Part shown: one piece after another, positions 11,718-31,309 of the stretch
Numbering within the stretch: the first letter of the stretch is position 1
How the letters are laid out: each line of letters begins with the position of its first letter
DNA from: a virus
Direction: 5' to 3' (one strand)
IMG/VR virus record: IMGVR_UViG_3300030118_001431
Location: 1-31,309 of that record
Length of the DNA stretch: 31,309 nt
Position numbers and translations under genes: made by a program
Notes under the pieces: generated by a model
Database searches by the model: none
Seen by the model: the letters and a program-made list of their open reading frames with translations, nothing else
What the model was told of the DNA's origin: nothing

Positions 11718-13178
11718 ATGTTTAAATATAAATTTAAGACGAAACCGTTTCAGCATCAATTGATTGCATTAGAAAGAAGTGCATTCGAAAAAAATTTCGC
11801 GTTGTTTATGGAGATGGGTACAGGTAAATCTAAAGTATTAATAGATAACATAGCTGTGCTCTATGACAACGGAAAGATTGATGGTGCTTTAATAGTTGCA
11901 CCCAAAGGTGTATATAAAAATTGGTTCTCAGAAGAGATACCTACACACATGCCTGATCATGTAAAAAAGAAAGTTGTTATGTGGAAAGCAAATCATACTA
12001 AAAAATTTAAAAAAGAATTTGAGTCTTTATTAAAAATAGATGATGATCTTCATATTTTTATTATGAACGTTGAAGCATTGTCTACACAAAAAGGTGTTGA
12101 TGCTGCACAAAAATTTTTAAGAACACATAAAGCTATGATGGCGATTGATGAAAGCACCACTATTAAAAACCCTGGTGCTGCTAGAACTAAAAATATAATT
12201 AAGATAGCTGATGGTGCCTTATATCGTAGAATATTAACAGGATCACCTGTAACTAAATCACCTTTAGATTTGTTTAGTCAGTGTTATTTTTTAGATCCGT
12301 TTTTATTAAACTTTTTTTCTTACGTATCTTTTAGAAATAGATATGCGATTATGCGTAGAGTGTTAATTAATGGTAGATCTATACAATTAGTTTCGGGATA
12401 TCAAAGACTAGAAGAGTTAGAAAAGAGTATTAAACCATTTTCATTTAGAATATTAAAGGAGGATTGCTTGGACTTACCAGATAAAATATTTATAAAACAT
12501 AGAGTAGAACTAACCAAAGAACAAAGAGAATTATACGATCAAATGCGAACCACGGCCCTCGCACATCTGAACTCTAAGGTTATGTCTACCAGCACTGTAT
12601 TAACTCAATTAATGAGGCTACATCAAATAACTTGTGGACATATGAAAACAGACGATGATGAGGTGATAGAGTTAAGTAATAATAGAATTAAAGATTTATT
12701 AAACTTAATAGAAGAAGTAGATGGTAAAGTTATTATATGGGCTAATTATGTTCACGATATTAGAAATATTATAAAGGCCATATCTCACATGAAAGATGAG
12801 GAAGGTAAAATAAAATATGGAAAAGATTCTATAGTAACTTATTATGGTGCTATCAGTGCTGATCAAAGACAAGAAAATATTAAAAAGTTTCAAGATCCTA
12901 ATTCTAAGGTTAGATTTTTTATAGGTAATCCTCAAACAGGTGGGTACGGTATTACACTAACAGAGGCAAAAGCTGTAATATATTATTCTAACAGTTATGA
13001 TTTAGAAAAAAGATTACAATCTGAAGATAGAGCACACAGAATAGGTCAAAAAAATAATGTAACCTATATTGATATGTTAGCGGATGATACTGTAGATGAA
13101 AAAATAGTAGAGTCTTTGAGAAACAAAGTTAATATCGCTACAGAAATAATGGGTGAAGACCTAAAACAGTGGATCTAA
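11718..13178 (+). CDS. SNF2-type superfamily 2 helicase/translocase, 486 aa
   Basis: Motifs in order: Q-like PFQHQ (10-14), Walker A MGTGKS (33-38), motif II DEST (144-147), motif III LTGSP (173-177), motif IV region VIIWANYVHDI, and motif VI QSEDRAHRIGQ (434-444), the hallmark of SNF2 ATPases. It uses ATP to move on double-stranded DNA and in phages is thought to remodel DNA-protein complexes or assist replication and recombination. It is at the short end of the family, with only the two-lobe motor and no accessory domain. It is one of only two plus-strand genes and is driven by the divergent palindromic promoter. Confidence 0.92.
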   Translation: MFKYKFKTKPFQHQLIALERSAFEKNFALFMEMGTGKSKVLIDNIAVLYDNGKIDGALIVAPKGVYKNWFSEEIPTHMPDHVKKKVVMWKANHTKKFKKEFESLLKIDDDLHIFIMNVEALSTQKGVDAAQKFLRTHKAMMAIDESTTIKNPGAARTKNIIKIADGALYRRILTGSPVTKSPLDLFSQCYFLDPFLLNFFSYVSFRNRYAIMRRVLINGRSIQLVSGYQRLEELEKSIKPFSFRILKEDCLDLPDKIFIKHRVELTKEQRELYDQMRTTALAHLNSKVMSTSTVLTQLMRLHQITCGHMKTDDDEVIELSNNRIKDLLNLIEEVDGKVIIWANYVHDIRNIIKAISHMKDEEGKIKYGKDSIVTYYGAISADQRQENIKKFQDPNSKVRFFIGNPQTGGYGITLTEAKAVIYYSNSYDLEKRLQSEDRAHRIGQKNNVTYIDMLADDTVDEKIVESLRNKVNIATEIMGEDLKQWI

Positions 13179-24049: not shown

Positions 24050-24209
24050 CTAAAAACCAGGTAAATCGCTCCTGCTCCTCTTTTAATTCGTTTAAATACG
24101 TAGAATTTAGCTGTTCTACAATACTAGCCAAAGACCTATTTATTTGTTTTTGGTTAGAAAACTCATATGTAGGTTTGGGTTCTGGTACTCTTACTATAAT
24201 TTTAGCCAT
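24042..24209 (-). CDS. small helical protein between tail genes, 55 aa
   Basis: ATG at 24209 (MAKIIVRVPEPKPTYEFSNQ) shares its A with the TAA of the 634-aa gene, and the frame ends in TAA at 24042-24044, inside the start of the 109-aa gene. The product has a Pro-rich beginning and then a charged helix (LASIVEQLNSTYLNELKEEQ). The overlaps at both ends make it a genuine gene although it is too short for default gene finders. Function unknown; probably a small virion or assembly protein. Confidence 0.75.
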   Translation of the reverse strand: MAKIIVRVPEPKPTYEFSNQKQINRSLASIVEQLNSTYLNELKEEQERFTWFLGG

Positions 24210-26113
24210 TATCTTCTTCCATCTGGTTGTATATCTATCTTAAATGTGCCAAATCTCCAAGACTCACTAGCAGCATCATTCTCTATCTTAATGTTTACGT
24301 ATCTTCCTCTGGCACGAGTATCCTTTTTATTGGTAGTAGCTGTTATTGTAAAGGGACTTAATGATGTTGTAGATTGAGATTGTTGAGGAAATCTTTTTAC
24401 AGCTAAAGTAACTTTTGCATTACCTAATAAATTTTTAAAATCAGGTATAAATCTTCTAACTGCTAAGAAAAACTCTCCTTCTCCCATCTGTGGATTAGCT
24501 ATGTCAAAGTCAAAAGATTGTATAAAAGAAGTAACAGTGGTTGTTGTACCGTCAGGGTTTACCTGATCAGTTCCTACTTCGTGTTCAAAATAGGTTGTTT
24601 GACCTAGACCTGACTCTCCAACAATTACAGGAAATGTACCACTTGAATTAGAATCATATTTAGTTGCAAAAGGATTTTGATAAACAGTTGCATCTATCCA
24701 TGTTGTTCTAGCTTCTGTTCCTGTATACCAAGTGCCTTCTCCATAATTATAAACAACGTATTTATCATTATACTCTGATCCATTCGAAGGATAATACCAA
24801 ACTATTTCAGTGTACAAATTATTTAAACCTGCATATACTTGTTGTCCTTTTGTTGTATCAAAATTATCATAAACAAAATCTTCTACAGAACACGGTAAAG
24901 ATTTAACAGTACCATCGTATAAAAAGAATCCTTTTGAGCTCATCCAAAAAGCAGCACCATCTATTTGAATCACAGCATTTTTACCAATGATACCACAGTT
25001 TGTACCAACTTGTTCAAATCCAAAAGTAAAAGGAGCACCTACGAATTTCATAAGATATAGAGAGTTATCTGTCCAAACCAATATGTTTTCTTTAGATCTT
25101 ATTGCAGACATAATTTTAGTACCGTCTTGTAGTCTTTGTGATCCTGCAGTATTGGTAGCTGTTGGTGTGTAAACATTTATAGCTTCTCTGTCAGAGAATC
25201 TTATGAACATATCATCTTGTGTACTTGTATTACCGATTGTTGTTTCTGTACCTAAATGAATTAAGTGACGAGTAGTTGGTGATGTTAAAGTAATTCTAGT
25301 GGCTGTTGGATTATTATTAGTTTGAAAATTTGATGTTGTAGTTGATGCTCTTGTTGTCAAAGGTGAACCTGCTCCAGCGTTCCATGTAAATGTTTTACCG
25401 TTTCCTATAGTTGCAATTAACACTTCACCAAAGTTACTTAATGACCATAAACCTGGCTCTAGTGATATATCAGAAGCTGATGCAGCCTCTCCCCAGTTAC
25501 CTGTGCCCCAAGTATCAATACCCCAACCATAACCATACGATTGCGCTCTTGGGCCAACGGGTTCAAAAGGTTTTATACTTAAACTACCACCAGTTGATAC
25601 TGTAGCAGTTGCATTAGATGATTGTGTTATTGTAAATGTACTTGTTGTTGGAACTGTTATTACTTGAAAGTTTTTATCTTCGAAGTCTGAATTACTAAAT
25701 CCTGTACCACCTGGTAGGGTAACGTTATCTAATTGTATTATATCTCCTGCAGATAAACCATGTGCAGTTTTTGTAATCGTACAAGTTGGTGATCCATTTG
25801 TTGTTGCAATAGTTGCAGAGGTTAAAGTAGTTTTTAAAGGTGTAATATCGTGAAGTTTTCCTTCAAAGTATATCAACAAAAACTTATCTGTTCCTATGGC
25901 TACATATCTATTACCATCTAAGTCTACAAAAGCATGTTGTGCTCTAGCTACACCCACTATTGTATCTGTTACAAGTGAAGCCCAGCCACCAACTTTTTCA
26001 GGTAGACCATATCTAAATCTTACATTGTCAGAATCAACCCATCTATTTTCTGCACCAACAGATGTATTTTGTTTATCAATTCCAGCTTGAAATTTAAAAT
26101 CAATGAGAGCCAC
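24209..26113 (-). CDS. tail nozzle/hub-like structural protein, 634 aa
   Basis: The start (MALIDFKFQAGIDKQNTSVG) and RWVDSDNVRFRYGLPEKVGG are a signature I know from podovirus-type tail proteins in marine phages. Repeated strand blocks with W-x-G and D-x-x-Y elements (LSNFGEVLIATIGNGKTFTW; DGAAFWMSSKGFFLYDG) suggest a beta-propeller, the fold of tail tubular protein B/P22 gp10-type nozzles that open the tail at infection. The start is GTG with GGAG seven bases upstream. A distal hub role in a long-tailed phage is an alternative. Confidence 0.65.
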   Translation of the reverse strand: MALIDFKFQAGIDKQNTSVGAENRWVDSDNVRFRYGLPEKVGGWASLVTDTIVGVARAQHAFVDLDGNRYVAIGTDKFLLIYFEGKLHDITPLKTTLTSATIATTNGSPTCTITKTAHGLSAGDIIQLDNVTLPGGTGFSNSDFEDKNFQVITVPTTSTFTITQSSNATATVSTGGSLSIKPFEPVGPRAQSYGYGWGIDTWGTGNWGEAASASDISLEPGLWSLSNFGEVLIATIGNGKTFTWNAGAGSPLTTRASTTTSNFQTNNNPTATRITLTSPTTRHLIHLGTETTIGNTSTQDDMFIRFSDREAINVYTPTATNTAGSQRLQDGTKIMSAIRSKENILVWTDNSLYLMKFVGAPFTFGFEQVGTNCGIIGKNAVIQIDGAAFWMSSKGFFLYDGTVKSLPCSVEDFVYDNFDTTKGQQVYAGLNNLYTEIVWYYPSNGSEYNDKYVVYNYGEGTWYTGTEARTTWIDATVYQNPFATKYDSNSSGTFPVIVGESGLGQTTYFEHEVGTDQVNPDGTTTTVTSFIQSFDFDIANPQMGEGEFFLAVRRFIPDFKNLLGNAKVTLAVKRFPQQSQSTTSLSPFTITATTNKKDTRARGRYVNIKIENDAASESWRFGTFKIDIQPDGRR

Positions 26114-26123
26114 GTCTCATCTC

Positions 26124-26843
26124 CTATATTTTAGTTTTATAAGCCCAGCCTCTAGTTGCGTTTACAAATACTAGAGTAAAAGCTGCACCATTTGTACTGA
26201 CAACTAAATTGGTAGCCGCACCTAAAATGTTTGAACCGTTTCGAGCAATAGTTAAATTATTTGAATTTAAATTATTACCACTATCGATAAAATGAACTTC
26301 ATTTCCAATAGCTGGAGAGGATGGAAGTGTTATAGTTACAGAACTATTAATACCACCTGCAGATGTATCTACTAATAACTGATCACCGTTAACAGCTGTG
26401 TAAGCACCTGGAACAGTGTAATAACCTTTTGTCTGTAGTTTCCCTGTAATATCTGTGCCATCAGAAAATAATAGCGTCGCTGATCCAGCAGGTAATGTAA
26501 CCCCTGTCCCCGAAACAGTTTTAACTGTTACAGTGTAACTACTAGATGATCTATTTGTAGCATCCTCTACAACAAAAACTCTCTCTGCTGAATCTGGCAT
26601 GGTTACTGTTACGTTTCCAGATAGAGTTCCAGTTAATTTATAATAAAAACTTTTACCAGTTGCTGTAGCATGGTTTGCTAAAGATAATGCTACTGTGCCA
26701 GATGATACTCCTATAATTAAAACACCTGTTGCTGCTTGTTCTAATATTTGTAAATTTGTATTTGTAATTGTGCCCCAGGTACCAGACTTTTCACCTGTGG
26801 TAATTAACTCCAATTTTAAATCACTTGATGTGCTCGATGCCAT
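26124..26843 (-). CDS. fibre-type structural protein, 239 aa
   Basis: The N-terminus SSTSSDLKLELITTGEKSGT followed by WGTITNTNLQILEQA is a recurrent attachment module of marine phage tail proteins. The rest is beta-rich with Thr/Ser/Val (SVTITLPSSPAIGNEVHFID; NNLTIARNGSNILG), as in thin fibres or tail-tip sheaths. AAGGAGAAAT precedes the ATG. It lies directly before the nozzle-like gene, so it probably joins the tail machine. Confidence 0.7.
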   Translation of the reverse strand: MASSTSSDLKLELITTGEKSGTWGTITNTNLQILEQAATGVLIIGVSSGTVALSLANHATATGKSFYYKLTGTLSGNVTVTMPDSAERVFVVEDATNRSSSSYTVTVKTVSGTGVTLPAGSATLLFSDGTDITGKLQTKGYYTVPGAYTAVNGDQLLVDTSAGGINSSVTITLPSSPAIGNEVHFIDSGNNLNSNNLTIARNGSNILGAATNLVVSTNGAAFTLVFVNATRGWAYKTKI

Positions 26844-26851
26844 ATTTCTCC

Positions 26852-27097
26852 TTATGGGTTAAGTGGATCAATAGGTATCCACGTTCCCGTTGCATTTGGA
26901 TCTATTTCACTCCATGATATCACAGAAACGGTACCTGTGGCAAGTTTAAATCTTTGACCCGTTACATTAGCTCCAAAACTAACTGAAGTATTTCCTACAT
27001 TAATATTAAACCTATTTCCACTAGGTAAAACAACTACATTTTGAATGCCTACTCCAGCAAAAGTTGTTGACGCGAAAGGTGTTGCTCCAAAAAACAT
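26852..27097 (-). CDS. short two-repeat paralogue of the 22-residue repeat protein, 81 aa
   Basis: It shares the N-terminal cap FFGATPFAS and the C-terminal cap W-x(5)-NATGTWIPI with the 217-aa neighbour but has only two repeat units (PSGNRFNINVGN and VTGQRFKLATG). Its ATG overlaps the neighbour's stop (TAATG). The pair looks like a tandem duplication followed by repeat expansion or loss. Predicted to be a virion surface protein because it lies among fibre genes. Confidence 0.75.
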   Translation of the reverse strand: MFFGATPFASTTFAGVGIQNVVVLPSGNRFNINVGNTSVSFGANVTGQRFKLATGTVSVISWSEIDPNATGTWIPIDPLNP

Positions 27098-27750
27098 TAC
27101 GGTATCTCCACCCAGGTTTGAGTTGCATTAGTAGGAACAGCCTCCCACATTCTTAAAGTAACGTCATTTGACTCTACTTTTAATTTTTCACCAGAAGGCT
27201 GAATAACAGCTTTTGCAAATACATCAAAATTACCAGTTCCAAAAGCAGTTGTTGATATATTAAATCTATTGCCTGAAACCACAGCTATTGCATTAGCTTT
27301 TGCAACTGCATTTCCTAATGATATATTTAATCTGTTTCCTGTTACAGAAACATTAGCCTTACCTATTACTGTAGTGTTACCTATTCCTACATTGTACCTA
27401 TTACCAGTTATTGTAGGTTTAGCTCCTGCTTTTATAGTTACACTATTTACAGAAATATCAAATTCTTCACCAGTTACTGGTACGTCGATAGGTATGGATG
27501 CTTGAGCGTTACCATTCGCTACATTAAATCTGTTACCTGTTAAAGCTACAATTGCTTTTGCAACTATTGTAGGATTGCTTGTAGCAATATTTAATCTTTC
27601 TCCTGTTACAGATACTTCTGCTTTACCTACTACTACAGAATTACCAACGGCTACGTTTAACCTTATACCTTGTAAAGATACAAATGCATTAGGATTGAAG
27701 CCTACATCTGAGAATGCGGCTGATGCAAAGGGTGTTGCACCGAAATACAC
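27097..27750 (-). CDS. eight-repeat beta protein of the tail region, 217 aa
   Basis: After the cap MYFGATPFASAAF come eight units of about 22 residues with the pattern A-x-V-x-V-(T/S)-G-x-R-(L/F)-N-(V/I)-x-x-x-N-x-x-V-x-x-K (for example VSVTGNRLNISLGN). One unit near the C-terminus has an insertion of about five residues. The protein ends with a cap ATQTWVEIP. Regular beta repeats like these would form a solenoid or a rod, suited to a host-contacting spike. The start is GTG with GAGG six bases upstream. No enzymatic motif. Confidence 0.75.
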   Translation of the reverse strand: MYFGATPFASAAFSDVGFNPNAFVSLQGIRLNVAVGNSVVVGKAEVSVTGERLNIATSNPTIVAKAIVALTGNRFNVANGNAQASIPIDVPVTGEEFDISVNSVTIKAGAKPTITGNRYNVGIGNTTVIGKANVSVTGNRLNISLGNAVAKANAIAVVSGNRFNISTTAFGTGNFDVFAKAVIQPSGEKLKVESNDVTLRMWEAVPTNATQTWVEIP

Positions 27751-27753
27751 GGA

Positions 27754-28812
27754 TTACCTCGCCGTTGCTGGGATGTTATTAGATCCTACCAGGGTTTGAC
27801 CAAAGGCTACATAAAAATAAGTGCTACCTGCACCACAAACATCATCACTACTTCCTCTAAATTTAAAACCATTACTTAGAAAATCTAAAGATCTTGAAGT
27901 CGAACTATCTTCTTGGTTAGCTGCTTGAGGCATTAAAAATTTACTAGCATAGTTATAAAAATCTCTTGATCTATCAAATATGAACCAACCTGTGCCTGAC
28001 GAATTAGTTTTTTTGACCATGAGCCATTGAGGAGCAAAACCAGTATAAATAAAGCTATCATCCATTGAAGCCTCAGTACCACTATCAGTTAGACCTGTAT
28101 ATTTTCCAATTTGGCTAAAACCATTTTTTTGTGCAAAACAGTAAGCTATAAAATCAGAACCACTAGCATTAGTATTATTAGCTGTACCAATTGAAAATAC
28201 AGTATTTGTTGGAGCTGTTGTTGGAAATGGTGAACTATCTCCATAAGAACCTAAAGCACCAGTCTCATTTAAATACAGTATGCCGCCTTGAGATCTATCA
28301 TCTACAGGCCATGCCTCAGTACCACCAGTTAATCTTTTTACTATTATTAATTTTGGAGCTGCGCCTAATCCATGGCCAACTGTTGTAACAGATCCACTGC
28401 CTGTATATTTAACAATACTTATACCTGCTGTTTGATTTACAGAAACTGTTGATGCTAAAGTTCCATCTGAATTAGCTGAACCTGCACCACCTGCTTTCCA
28501 ATTCCAACCAACATAAGTTCCACTATTTGCATTTACATCATTATAACTACCTAGTGAAAAACCATCACTATCAAAAGAGGTTACTCCTCCTGTACCACTA
28601 CTCGTTTCAACATTAGTTGCGTTTGAATAAACTGCATTTGCTGCACCTCTAATTACATTTTGTAAATAATGCCAACCACTGCTATCTCGTCTTTTTGTCC
28701 ATAAAAAATCTGGTTGAAAACCAACTCCTGTAATAGATTGTGTTCCTCCATTACCAGTATAAAGAACTGTGTTCATGTTGCTTTTTGATTTATCAACTGA
28801 AGTATATGCCAT
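27754..28812 (-). CDS. three-fold repeat adhesin-like tail protein (DUF7483-like), 352 aa
   Basis: The protein contains three related blocks: YTGNGGTQSITGVGFQPDFL (about residue 18), YTGSGSVTTVGHGLGAAPKL (about 136) and FIYTGFAPQWLMVKKTNSSG (about 255). Each continues into V/T-K-(R/K) and W elements. This pattern is that of DUF7483-type tail proteins in marine phages. Gly/Ser-rich aromatic composition suggests a cell-surface binding protein. GGAG with good spacing precedes the ATG. There are no catalytic residues. Confidence 0.7.
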   Translation of the reverse strand: MAYTSVDKSKSNMNTVLYTGNGGTQSITGVGFQPDFLWTKRRDSSGWHYLQNVIRGAANAVYSNATNVETSSGTGGVTSFDSDGFSLGSYNDVNANSGTYVGWNWKAGGAGSANSDGTLASTVSVNQTAGISIVKYTGSGSVTTVGHGLGAAPKLIIVKRLTGGTEAWPVDDRSQGGILYLNETGALGSYGDSSPFPTTAPTNTVFSIGTANNTNASGSDFIAYCFAQKNGFSQIGKYTGLTDSGTEASMDDSFIYTGFAPQWLMVKKTNSSGTGWFIFDRSRDFYNYASKFLMPQAANQEDSSTSRSLDFLSNGFKFRGSSDDVCGAGSTYFYVAFGQTLVGSNNIPATAR

Positions 28813-28824
28813 TTATTATTTCTC

Positions 28825-30168
28825 CTATTGGTTCAAATTTTTAGTACACCATGCTAAATAATTAGTTGGTGGTTGATATTTAAAAACTCCAAAACCTGCA
28901 CTATCGGTGTAAGTAGTACCAGTTAATTGTGTATTTGCAAATGCACCATTACCAAAATTAAGTTCTGTTCTGTTATCATTATTACTTACTGAATACCAAT
29001 TTACTGAAGGTGTTATCCAATGACCTCTTGATTTTTTAATACTGCAATTTGTAAAGCCTGATAAACTTAAAGCATTTACATTAGATATAACTGTTCCATT
29101 TTTATAAGCTGTAACAGTATCACCATCTATATCTATGGCTAAACCAATGTAGTCGCCAGTTGTAAAAGTTACACCTAACGCAGTAGAATCTGGGTCATAT
29201 CCATTATAACCATTAACACCACCTCTTATATATCCATCTGTTGAAATATTAAATCCACTATAATAAGTATCAGCACCATTATTAGGATTATCAGCACTAT
29301 CCCAACCTAGTCTTATAGGTCTACCAGATGTAGTAGCTTGAATATAAGCCTCATAATACCATTTACCACTTTTAGCCGCTAAACTTGCATTTGCTCTCAT
29401 CCAAGCAGAACCATTGCCTCTTACTCTAGTATTAGCGTAATCTATATCAAGAGTTCCACTGCCAAAACTTTGCAAAGGATTTATAGTTGCAAAATTATTA
29501 GAAGGATTATCTTTTGTTGATGTAAGTGTACCTGTATCAACTGCCCAGTTATTTGTATTAGGTGATTGGTCTGTTAATGAATTGCTATCTTTTAAAATAA
29601 AAAAACCATTGTTTCCATAAGTAACACTAGGACTAGCATTTATTCGCCACTCACCAGTTGTTGCATCTGTTGCACCAAATGATGATGCTTGATAAGTATA
29701 ACCATCTGTAAAGTGTATATGGCTCATACATCCATCAAATTGATTACCACCTCCATTATCACCAATGTAGTGAGCAACTGCACTATTCATAGAGTTTGTT
29801 ACATCTTGTGAAGCATGAGTTGCAGCATCAAAATTTGTAACTCTTGTGCCATTTACATAAATTTTAATCCTATCTGAATTTGTGCCTAAGGTGCTATCAT
29901 AAGCGAAAACAATGTGCATCCACGCATTACTATCTCTATAAACAGCACTTGTTTCATACTGCCATATCATAGAGCCACTATTTAAATAAAAGAAATAAAG
30001 TTTATTATTACTATTGAATCTAAAAGTTACATTTACTGAACCTGCATTATTTGCATTAAATAATACTTGGTCACCACCAAGTTTTGCTCTTTTTACCCAA
30101 GCACTCCAAGTAAATTTTTTTCCGTTTGTTGGTGTTCCTAAAGTTTTTAATAATCTTGTACCAGCCAT
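28825..30168 (-). CDS. LamG/SPRY-like lectin tail protein, 447 aa
   Basis: Residues 1-165 match a concanavalin A/LamG jelly roll (FTWSAWVKRAKLGGDQVLFN; WMHIVFAYDSTLGTNSDRIK; IYVNGTRVTNF). Residues 250-420 resemble a SPRY domain (GKWYYEAYIQATTSGRPIRL; DYIGLAIDIDGDTVTAYKNG). Both folds bind glycans or proteins, so this is a likely receptor-binding protein. Its ATG overlaps the stop of the upstream gene (TAATG). Double-lectin proteins of this type occur in marine phage genomes near other tail genes. Confidence 0.8.
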   Translation of the reverse strand: MAGTRLLKTLGTPTNGKKFTWSAWVKRAKLGGDQVLFNANNAGSVNVTFRFNSNNKLYFFYLNSGSMIWQYETSAVYRDSNAWMHIVFAYDSTLGTNSDRIKIYVNGTRVTNFDAATHASQDVTNSMNSAVAHYIGDNGGGNQFDGCMSHIHFTDGYTYQASSFGATDATTGEWRINASPSVTYGNNGFFILKDSNSLTDQSPNTNNWAVDTGTLTSTKDNPSNNFATINPLQSFGSGTLDIDYANTRVRGNGSAWMRANASLAAKSGKWYYEAYIQATTSGRPIRLGWDSADNPNNGADTYYSGFNISTDGYIRGGVNGYNGYDPDSTALGVTFTTGDYIGLAIDIDGDTVTAYKNGTVISNVNALSLSGFTNCSIKKSRGHWITPSVNWYSVSNNDNRTELNFGNGAFANTQLTGTTYTDSAGFGVFKYQPPTNYLAWCTKNLNQ

Positions 30169-31309
30169 TAGTTAAATTGTGCTCCTCCACTTGATCCATG
30201 AGATATAGTAATACTAAACGCACGATCTGCTGTTTGACCCTCTGCATCCGTTGCTCTTATTGTAAAGTTAAAAGTAGTCGTTTGCGTTGAGCCTGATTCA
30301 GTACCAGTGATTGCACCCGTACTTGTATTTAAACTTGCACCACCTGGAAGTGCTCCAGATTGTACTGCAAAACTTGTAGCATTTGTAGCTGCCACTGTAA
30401 AGTTGATAGTTCCGCCACTTGCAACCGTTCCCAAACTTCCTGCAGAAGTTGTCCACGCAGGTGCATCTGATACTGTAAGTAAAGCTGTTCCAGATCTACA
30501 TGCAATACCATCGTTATTCTCTAATCTTAAAAAATATGTGCCATCAACTGGTAAAGTAAAGTTTGCAGTTACAGAAGTTGCACTTGTAAATGTTACAGAG
30601 TTTGCAGTTACAATAGCACCAGTAGATGCGTTGATTGCATCAACAAAAGGTGGTGTAGAGCTATCTTTAAAATTTGTACCAGTAATTACAACGTTTGCTG
30701 CATTATTATCAATAACAGTTGGACTGATAGATGAGATAGTTGGAAAAAGAACACTATCAGAAAAAGTTAAAGTTCCTGATCCATCAGTAGATATAACTTG
30801 ATTCGCTGTACCATCAGTTGTTGGTAATTTTAAAAACACACCAGTATTAATTGTTGGTGAATTATGTATTGTGTGATTACCCATGTTAGCATGTACTGAA
30901 CATTGATAATATAAAATGCTTGGTGTATCTTTATCTACAGCAATTGTTGTATGTGCCCCTGCTTGTCCTGGTGTTCCAGATGTAGTTACACCTGTAGTAA
31001 ATTGTGTAGTTTTACCTACGTTGTTATAAAATCTTAATGGGTGTCCAGAGTTAGATGCATCTGATTGATCAAACTTATAATAGTATGGCTTTGCTGTATC
31101 ATTACCTTTTAATTCTATAATTGGTGCTTCAATGCCATTTATAACATACGCATTAGAACTACCAACGTTGTGATATGGATGACCAGTAGTTTTAGTTGCA
31201 ACAGTAACTGTGTATACTATTGGAGCAGAAGCAGATGCATAAGGACTAAGAAATCCTCCACCACCAGAATCTTTACTGATGATTAGATTACCTTGTTGGT
31301 CTTGTATTG
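30168..31309 (-). CDS. tail-fibre-like protein with cupredoxin-like and Ig-like domains (partial, cut by the right edge)
   Basis: The reading frame is open from the window edge to the stop at 30168; the ATG at 30884 is internal, since the frame upstream encodes GHPLRFYNNVG and ILYYQCSVHANMGNH without a stop. Three parts follow: a cupredoxin-like segment (about 31080-30882) with His, Cys, His and Met at the four type 1 copper ligand positions; an IPT/TIG-like Ig domain (about 30745-30465, PTISSISPTVIDNNAANVVI); and a putative-Ig (He_PIG-like) domain (about 30465-30190, ALPGGASLNTSTGAITGTES). The real start is beyond the window. Probably a long adhesive fibre. Confidence 0.8.
   Translation of the reverse strand, partial: IQDQQGNLIISKDSGGGGFLSPYASASAPIVYTVTVATKTTGHPYHNVGSSNAYVINGIEAPIIELKGNDTAKPYYYKFDQSDASNSGHPLRFYNNVGKTTQFTTGVTTSGTPGQAGAHTTIAVDKDTPSILYYQCSVHANMGNHTIHNSPTINTGVFLKLPTTDGTANQVISTDGSGTLTFSDSVLFPTISSISPTVIDNNAANVVITGTNFKDSSTPPFVDAINASTGAIVTANSVTFTSATSVTANFTLPVDGTYFLRLENNDGIACRSGTALLTVSDAPAWTTSAGSLGTVASGGTINFTVAATNATSFAVQSGALPGGASLNTSTGAITGTESGSTQTTTFNFTIRATDAEGQTADRAFSITISHGSSGGAQFN

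What the first reader, a model, noticed from the sequence alone, without database searches (positions are those of the whole stretch)
26852..27750. Tandem paralogues built from 8 and 2 copies of a 22-residue repeat
Both proteins share N-terminal and C-terminal caps and differ mainly in repeat number. This suggests length change by recombination between 66-base units, a possible way to vary a host-contacting rod. The unit A-x-V-x-V-TG-x-R-(L/F)-N-(V/I) does not match a repeat family I can name.
Basis: partly seen in the sequence, partly recalled or inferred. Interest (0 to 1): 0.65.

Follow-up and report, generated by a model that had tools for sequence, protein, structure and literature searches.

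The report
Repeat-built twin phage tail-locus proteins
Two neighbouring genes of an uncultured ocean phage, probably of SAR11 bacteria, encode proteins built from 8 and 2 copies of a 22-residue unit; the copy number is fixed in the phage's near relatives but changes by whole units, often three at a time, across the wider family, so the proteins probably form virion rods whose length evolves in steps.

Summary
On the minus strand, protein A (27097-27750, 217 aa) has 8 units of about 22 residues and protein B (26852-27097, 81 aa) has 2, between related N- and C-terminal caps; the period is far beyond chance. The window is a lytic podovirus related to SAR11 phages HTVC023P and HTVC027P. A and B lie between lectin/DUF7483 proteins and tail genes. 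Homologues, including HTVC023P gp68, occupy the same slot next to the same tail protein. They match no named Pfam or PDB family.

Length change is partly supported. B has two units wherever it was read. A has 8 units in every relative down to about 53% identity, and 9 or 11 only in deeper lineages. The window's units are only about 50% identical as DNA, so they are not slippage substrates now. In the HTVC023P sister clade, however, proteins 81-90% identical elsewhere differ by exactly three units, with three breakpoint layouts.

Best reading: beta-rich virion appendage or tail-fibre parts whose unit number sets length. The fold is unresolved (two failed AlphaFold runs) and receptor contact is inference. 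Most interesting: the three-unit step.

The parts
27097..27750 (-). Protein A, 217 aa, 8 units of the 22-residue repeat between caps
   Evidence: ORF, periodicity test, segmentation
26852..27097 (-). Protein B, 81 aa, 2 units between related caps; start overlaps A stop by one base (TAATG)
27679..27750 (-). A N-terminal cap (residues 1-24, MYFGATPFASAAFSDVGFNPNAFV); MYFG, TPF and FSDVGF invariant or nearly so in relatives
27202..27678 (-). A units 1-7 (27613-27678, 27547-27612, 27481-27546, 27415-27480, 27349-27414, 27283-27348, 27202-27282; unit 7 carries a 5-residue insertion)
27097..27201 (-). A unit 8 merging into the W...W C-terminal cap, and stop
27029..27097 (-). B N-terminal cap (MFFGATPFASTTFAGVGIQNVVV)
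26852..27028 (-). B units 1 and 2 and the W...W C-cap
26124..26843 (-). Syntenic tail-locus protein (phrog_31104-like; homologues are HTVC023P gp69 'putative tail protein' and the 'tail fiber like' protein of 023Pt_psg01), directly downstream of the repeat genes
27754..28812 (-). DUF7483 protein, upstream neighbour; matches virion structural and tail fiber PHROGs
28825..30168 (-). Laminin_G_3 (concanavalin-like lectin) protein with sub-threshold SPRY similarity; same virion structural PHROG (19943) as the DUF7483 protein
30168..30884 (-). Protein with a putative Ig domain (He_PIG), first gene of the cluster as seen in the window
24209..26113 (-). Virion structural protein (phrog_3287), downstream

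Best explanation
A and B are a conserved long/short pair of beta-rich virion appendage (tail-fibre locus) proteins. Each has an N-terminal cap, a stack of 22-residue strand-turn-strand units and a C-terminal W...W cap; the number of units sets the length. A and B arose by duplication and differ by loss or gain of the middle units. Unit number evolves by in-frame recombination between units, or exchange of long and short alleles, rarely in the window's lineage and often in the HTVC023P-like sister clade, commonly in steps of three units. Shown: the repeats, homology, synteny, counts and unit-exact indels. Inferred: the beta structure, presence in the virion, the rod shape and any role in host contact.
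For: Periodicity and unit count. Position between DUF7483/lectin proteins matching virion structural and tail-fibre PHROGs and tail structural proteins. The same slot beside the same gp69-like tail protein in HTVC023P (gp68), 023Pt_psg01 and, with WG-rich inserts, DSL-LC04. Profile match of A to gp68 over 208 columns, E 4.5e-13, and to the DSL-LC04 protein, E 9e-9 (repeat proteins can inflate such scores). Hydrophobic alternation along the unit, with G at 4 and 12. Unit-exact length differences between close homologues. B directly after A, with 2 units, in every locus examined where both could be read; two loci have a broken frame there.
Against: No direct structural or proteomic evidence. AlphaFold2 gave no confident fold in two attempts (pLDDT 58.7 and 51.5). 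No significant PDB match. Homologues in isolates are annotated only as hypothetical proteins. Genome neighbourhood does not prove virion location.
Confidence: 0.6

Rival explanations
1. The units are a trimeric beta-helical needle or spike, like the C-terminal part of T4 gp5 or VgrG: three chains intertwine, each V-x-G... unit adds a fixed length, and the proteins are tail-tip or fibre shafts. (A specific form of the best explanation.)
For: The unit begins V-T-G-x-x-L-x-I, like the VxGxxxxx octapeptide of gp5C. Weak matches to gp5C: phrog_430 best E 1.4e-4 in 4-6 members and PDB 4jj2 E 0.13. A monomer prediction would be expected to fail for an intertwined trimer.
Against: Matches are marginal and could be composition. 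The unit is 22, not 8, residues, with a second G at position 12. No trimer could be modelled here.
Confidence: 0.25
2. A and B are curlin-like (CsgA/CsgB) amyloid fibre subunits; HTVC023P-type phages are reported to carry type VIII secretion genes with curli-repeat proteins (PMC9599517).
For: Similar unit length of about 22 residues, strand-turn-strand pattern, long and short paralogues; the paper reports curli repeat genes in related phages.
Against: No curlin match in Pfam for A, B or 62 relatives; the unit has no conserved Gln ladder; no CsgG or CsgF domain among the window proteins scanned; neighbours are lectin and tail proteins. The paper's curli genes lie with a histidine kinase and CsgF/CsgG, a different setting.
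Confidence: 0.05
3. The 8/11 forms in the sister clade are ancient alleles exchanged between phages, and repeat number itself has no functional meaning (neutral variation).
For: On the tree of the neighbouring tail gene 8- and 11-unit forms are nearly intermixed (8 changes in 36 rows), unlike in the window's clade (4 in 69). No 10-unit form was established among complete proteins (some 293-aa proteins show only 10 units above threshold, but have the 11-unit length).
Against: At least three breakpoint layouts exist (22+44, and 66 at two places), so probably more than one event occurred, and all give +3 units.
Confidence: 0.3

Closest known systems
HTVC023P gp68 and relatives (hypothetical proteins of HTVC023P-type pelagiphages; 023Pt_psg01 URG13121.1)
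   Same: Same 22-residue unit class, related N-cap and W...W C-cap, same position before the gp69-like tail protein; full-length profile match
   Different: One gene in place of the A/B pair; 5 units (psg01 clade, constant 149-150 aa) or 8/11 units plus 2-4 C-terminal 11-residue W units; about 22-31% identity
Phage DSL-LC04 WJZ48131.1 (hypothetical protein beside an intramolecular-chaperone-domain protein and a putative lectin)
   Same: 22-residue V-x-V-T-G units, tail-fibre locus, gp69-like next gene, W-rich C-terminus
   Different: 376 aa with WG-rich inserts; lake-water phage with a gammaproteobacterial host as recorded; outside the close family
T4 gp5 C-terminal triple beta-helix (VxGxxxxx repeats)
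   Same: V-x-G strand motif; weak sequence matches
   Different: 8-residue repeat; matches not significant; structure not shown
CrAssphage BACON-domain tandem repeats (PMC6949934, title and abstract only)
   Same: Phage protein with domain tandem repeats, described as hotspots of evolution
   Different: Whole carbohydrate-binding-associated domains in gut phages; no sequence relation was looked for

Membership tests
HTVC023P gp68-like repeat protein family | Full-length sequence homology, with the 22-residue units in register | tested here: met
   hhalign of A1 against gp68: probability 97.9, E 4.5e-13, 208 columns; joint alignment A3
HTVC023P gp68-like repeat protein family | Same gene position before the gp69-like tail protein | tested here: met
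   phrog_31104 hits in window, HTVC023P and DSL-LC04 proteins
HTVC023P gp68-like repeat protein family | Single gene in the slot | tested here: not met
   window clade has two genes, A and B; treated as a variant of the family, since homology and position are met
Curlin repeat (CsgA/CsgB) | Pfam curlin repeat match with a Gln/Asn ladder | tested here: not met
Curlin repeat (CsgA/CsgB) | Neighbouring CsgG/CsgF secretion genes | tested here: not met
   no such domain in the 16 window proteins scanned against Pfam; other ORFs not scanned
T4 gp5C / VgrG triple beta-helix | Significant profile match or matching solved fold | tested here: inconclusive
   E 0.13 in PDB, 1.4e-4 best in PHROGs for a few members; no usable model
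Phage tail fibre or virion appendage protein | Present in the virion | not testable with these tools
   only genome neighbourhood
Phage tail fibre or virion appendage protein | Elongated, beta-rich, usually trimeric fold | tested here: inconclusive
   two AlphaFold2 monomer runs failed

The most novel reading that the evidence does not exclude
The 22-residue unit is an undescribed beta-fibre building block whose length is adjusted in steps of three units (2, 5, 8, 11 dominate; 9 is the exception). This would mean that three units make one structural turn and that these abundant ocean phages tune appendage length in quanta.
Probability: 0.2. Interest if true: 0.6.

Novelty: new variant of a known kind. 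Interest (0 to 1): 0.42.

Why it matters
[quoted passage not shown] A conserved repeat protein pair in the tail locus, with unit-exact long and short forms among natural phages, is a concrete candidate for a length-tuned appendage, and an isolate with a homologue (HTVC023P) exists in which it can be tested.

Tried and rejected
Ongoing slippage in the window's own gene: rejected, units share about 50% DNA identity and at most 9 nt exact at unit spacing. B missing in some relatives: a regex artefact; direct translation of 11 representative loci shows B in place in nine, with broken frames in the other two. Curli: rejected (see membership test). Bacterial genome hits: none. AlphaFold of A with 28 and with 62 sequences: both unusable, so no fold search was run. 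PHROG, Pfam and PDB searches of A: nothing significant and consistent. The rule 'counts are 3n+2' was considered; 9-unit forms break it, so it is kept only as a tendency. Literature search found no description of this repeat.

Full report
Observation. A (217 aa) and B (81 aa) are adjacent, and A's stop and B's start share one base. The 22-residue period in A is real: identity at shift 22 is 0.292 against 0.088 +/- 0.024 in shuffled controls (none of 5000 as high), with another peak at 44. A has 8 units and B has 2; A's eighth unit in the window's own near-identical clade falls below the automatic threshold and is assigned by alignment to relatives, where it scores. The caps of A and B are related. 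A DNA-level tandem repeat search does not find the array, since adjacent units share only 35-61% DNA identity.

What the window is. It is most of a 35.9-kb virus record with DNA polymerase A, primase, helicases, an M15 peptidase and a 1399-aa structural protein whose nearest phage relative is Pelagibacter phage HTVC027P, 29% identical over 97%. So it is probably an uncultured pelagiphage-like podovirus; the host and the lytic lifestyle are inferred. The repeat genes follow an Ig-like protein, a Laminin_G_3 lectin and a DUF7483 protein (the last two match one fused virion structural PHROG) and precede a gp69-like protein and a 634-aa virion protein.

Relatives. Three groups of homologues were gathered from viral contigs: the window clade, an HTVC023P gp68-like clade and an 023Pt_psg01-like clade. 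No bacterial genome matched. HTVC023P gp68 aligns along its whole length with the profile of A (E 4.5e-13) and lies directly before the homologue of the window's next gene, as does the 149-aa protein of 023Pt_psg01. A protein of lake-water phage DSL-LC04 with the same unit class lies beside a gp69-like protein and a putative lectin. The isolate and genome records call all three repeat proteins hypothetical.

Repeat number. Among the first 73 relatives with a complete A (53-99% identical), A is 211-217 aa (8 units) and B is 81-83 aa (2 units). Across the enlarged set of unique sequences A has 8 (58), 9 (5) or 11 (18) units, and B has 2 in the 60 that were scored, with 69 unique sequences all of 78-84 aa. 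The 11-unit count for the later-added sequences rests on their length class (276-282 aa). On a tree of the neighbouring gp69-like gene these states need 4 changes in 69 rows, so number is a lineage trait. In the psg01 clade 57 readable proteins were found, all of 149-150 aa. In the HTVC023P-like clade proteins are mostly 8 or 11 units, with 9 in a few, and the states are intermixed on the tree (8 changes in 36 rows). The searches keep only the best 80 loci each, so the sampling is biased to the query.

Unit-exact changes. L309 (226 aa) and L323 (292 aa) are 90% identical over 226 residues and differ by one block of 22 and one of 44 residues. L349/L350 have the same first and last 45 residues and differ by one 66-residue block, partly offset by a single residue. 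L331/L324 differ by one 66-residue block at another place. One 8-unit unit reads like the start of 11-form unit 6 joined to the end of unit 8, as expected for recombination inside homologous units. Close relatives (L355/L361, 96%) also differ by one 11-residue C-terminal W unit. In the window's A, by contrast, the longest exact unit-spaced repeat is 9 nt, against up to 34 nt in the sister clade, and units are 60% identical to their positional counterparts in other phages against 32% to other units. Length change is therefore real in the family but is not an active switch here.

How it most likely works. The unit's pattern suggests two beta strands joined by a G-N turn; stacked units would make a rod, with the caps for attachment and closure, and B a short version of A. 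Steps of three units could mark a structural turn. All of this is inference: AlphaFold2 monomer runs failed (pLDDT 58.7 with pTM 0.27; 51.5 with pTM 0.24) and PDB searches gave only a non-significant lead to the T4 gp5 triple beta-helix (PHROG echo).

Verdict. Observation confirmed; interpretation partly supported. The repeat family lacks a name in Pfam and a significant PDB match, but relatives sit unannotated in known pelagiphages, so this is a new variant of a known kind (repeat-built phage appendage proteins), of moderate interest, chiefly for the three-unit step and the conserved long/short pair.

Noticed in passing
L303-L370 (HTVC023P-like clade): 8- and 11-unit forms with three different breakpoint layouts all differ by exactly three units; overall counts 2, 5, 8 and 11 dominate, with 9 as the exception.
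   Followed up: partly
L355, L361, L304, L328, L346 C-termini: A second, 11-residue repeat (W-T-x-V-N-x-G-V-S-N-T) at the C-terminus varies from 2 to 4 copies between relatives.
   Followed up: partly
window 27754-30884: Ig-like, lectin and DUF7483 domains lie in three separate genes here; the lectin and DUF7483 parts match consecutive regions of one fused 1227-aa virion structural family, phrog_19943.
   Followed up: no
window 11718-13178 (+): An SNF2-type helicase gene lies on the plus strand, opposite to the other large genes of the window.
   Followed up: no
L230 and L240, after or within A: The B reading frame (L230) or the end of A and start of B (L240) is broken by a frameshift, possibly an assembly error.
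   Followed up: partly
L172 5982-7865 (HTVC023P gp65-gp67): 2OG-Fe(II) oxygenase and putative ferrochelatase genes sit directly upstream of gp68, where the window has the lectin and DUF7483 genes.
   Followed up: no
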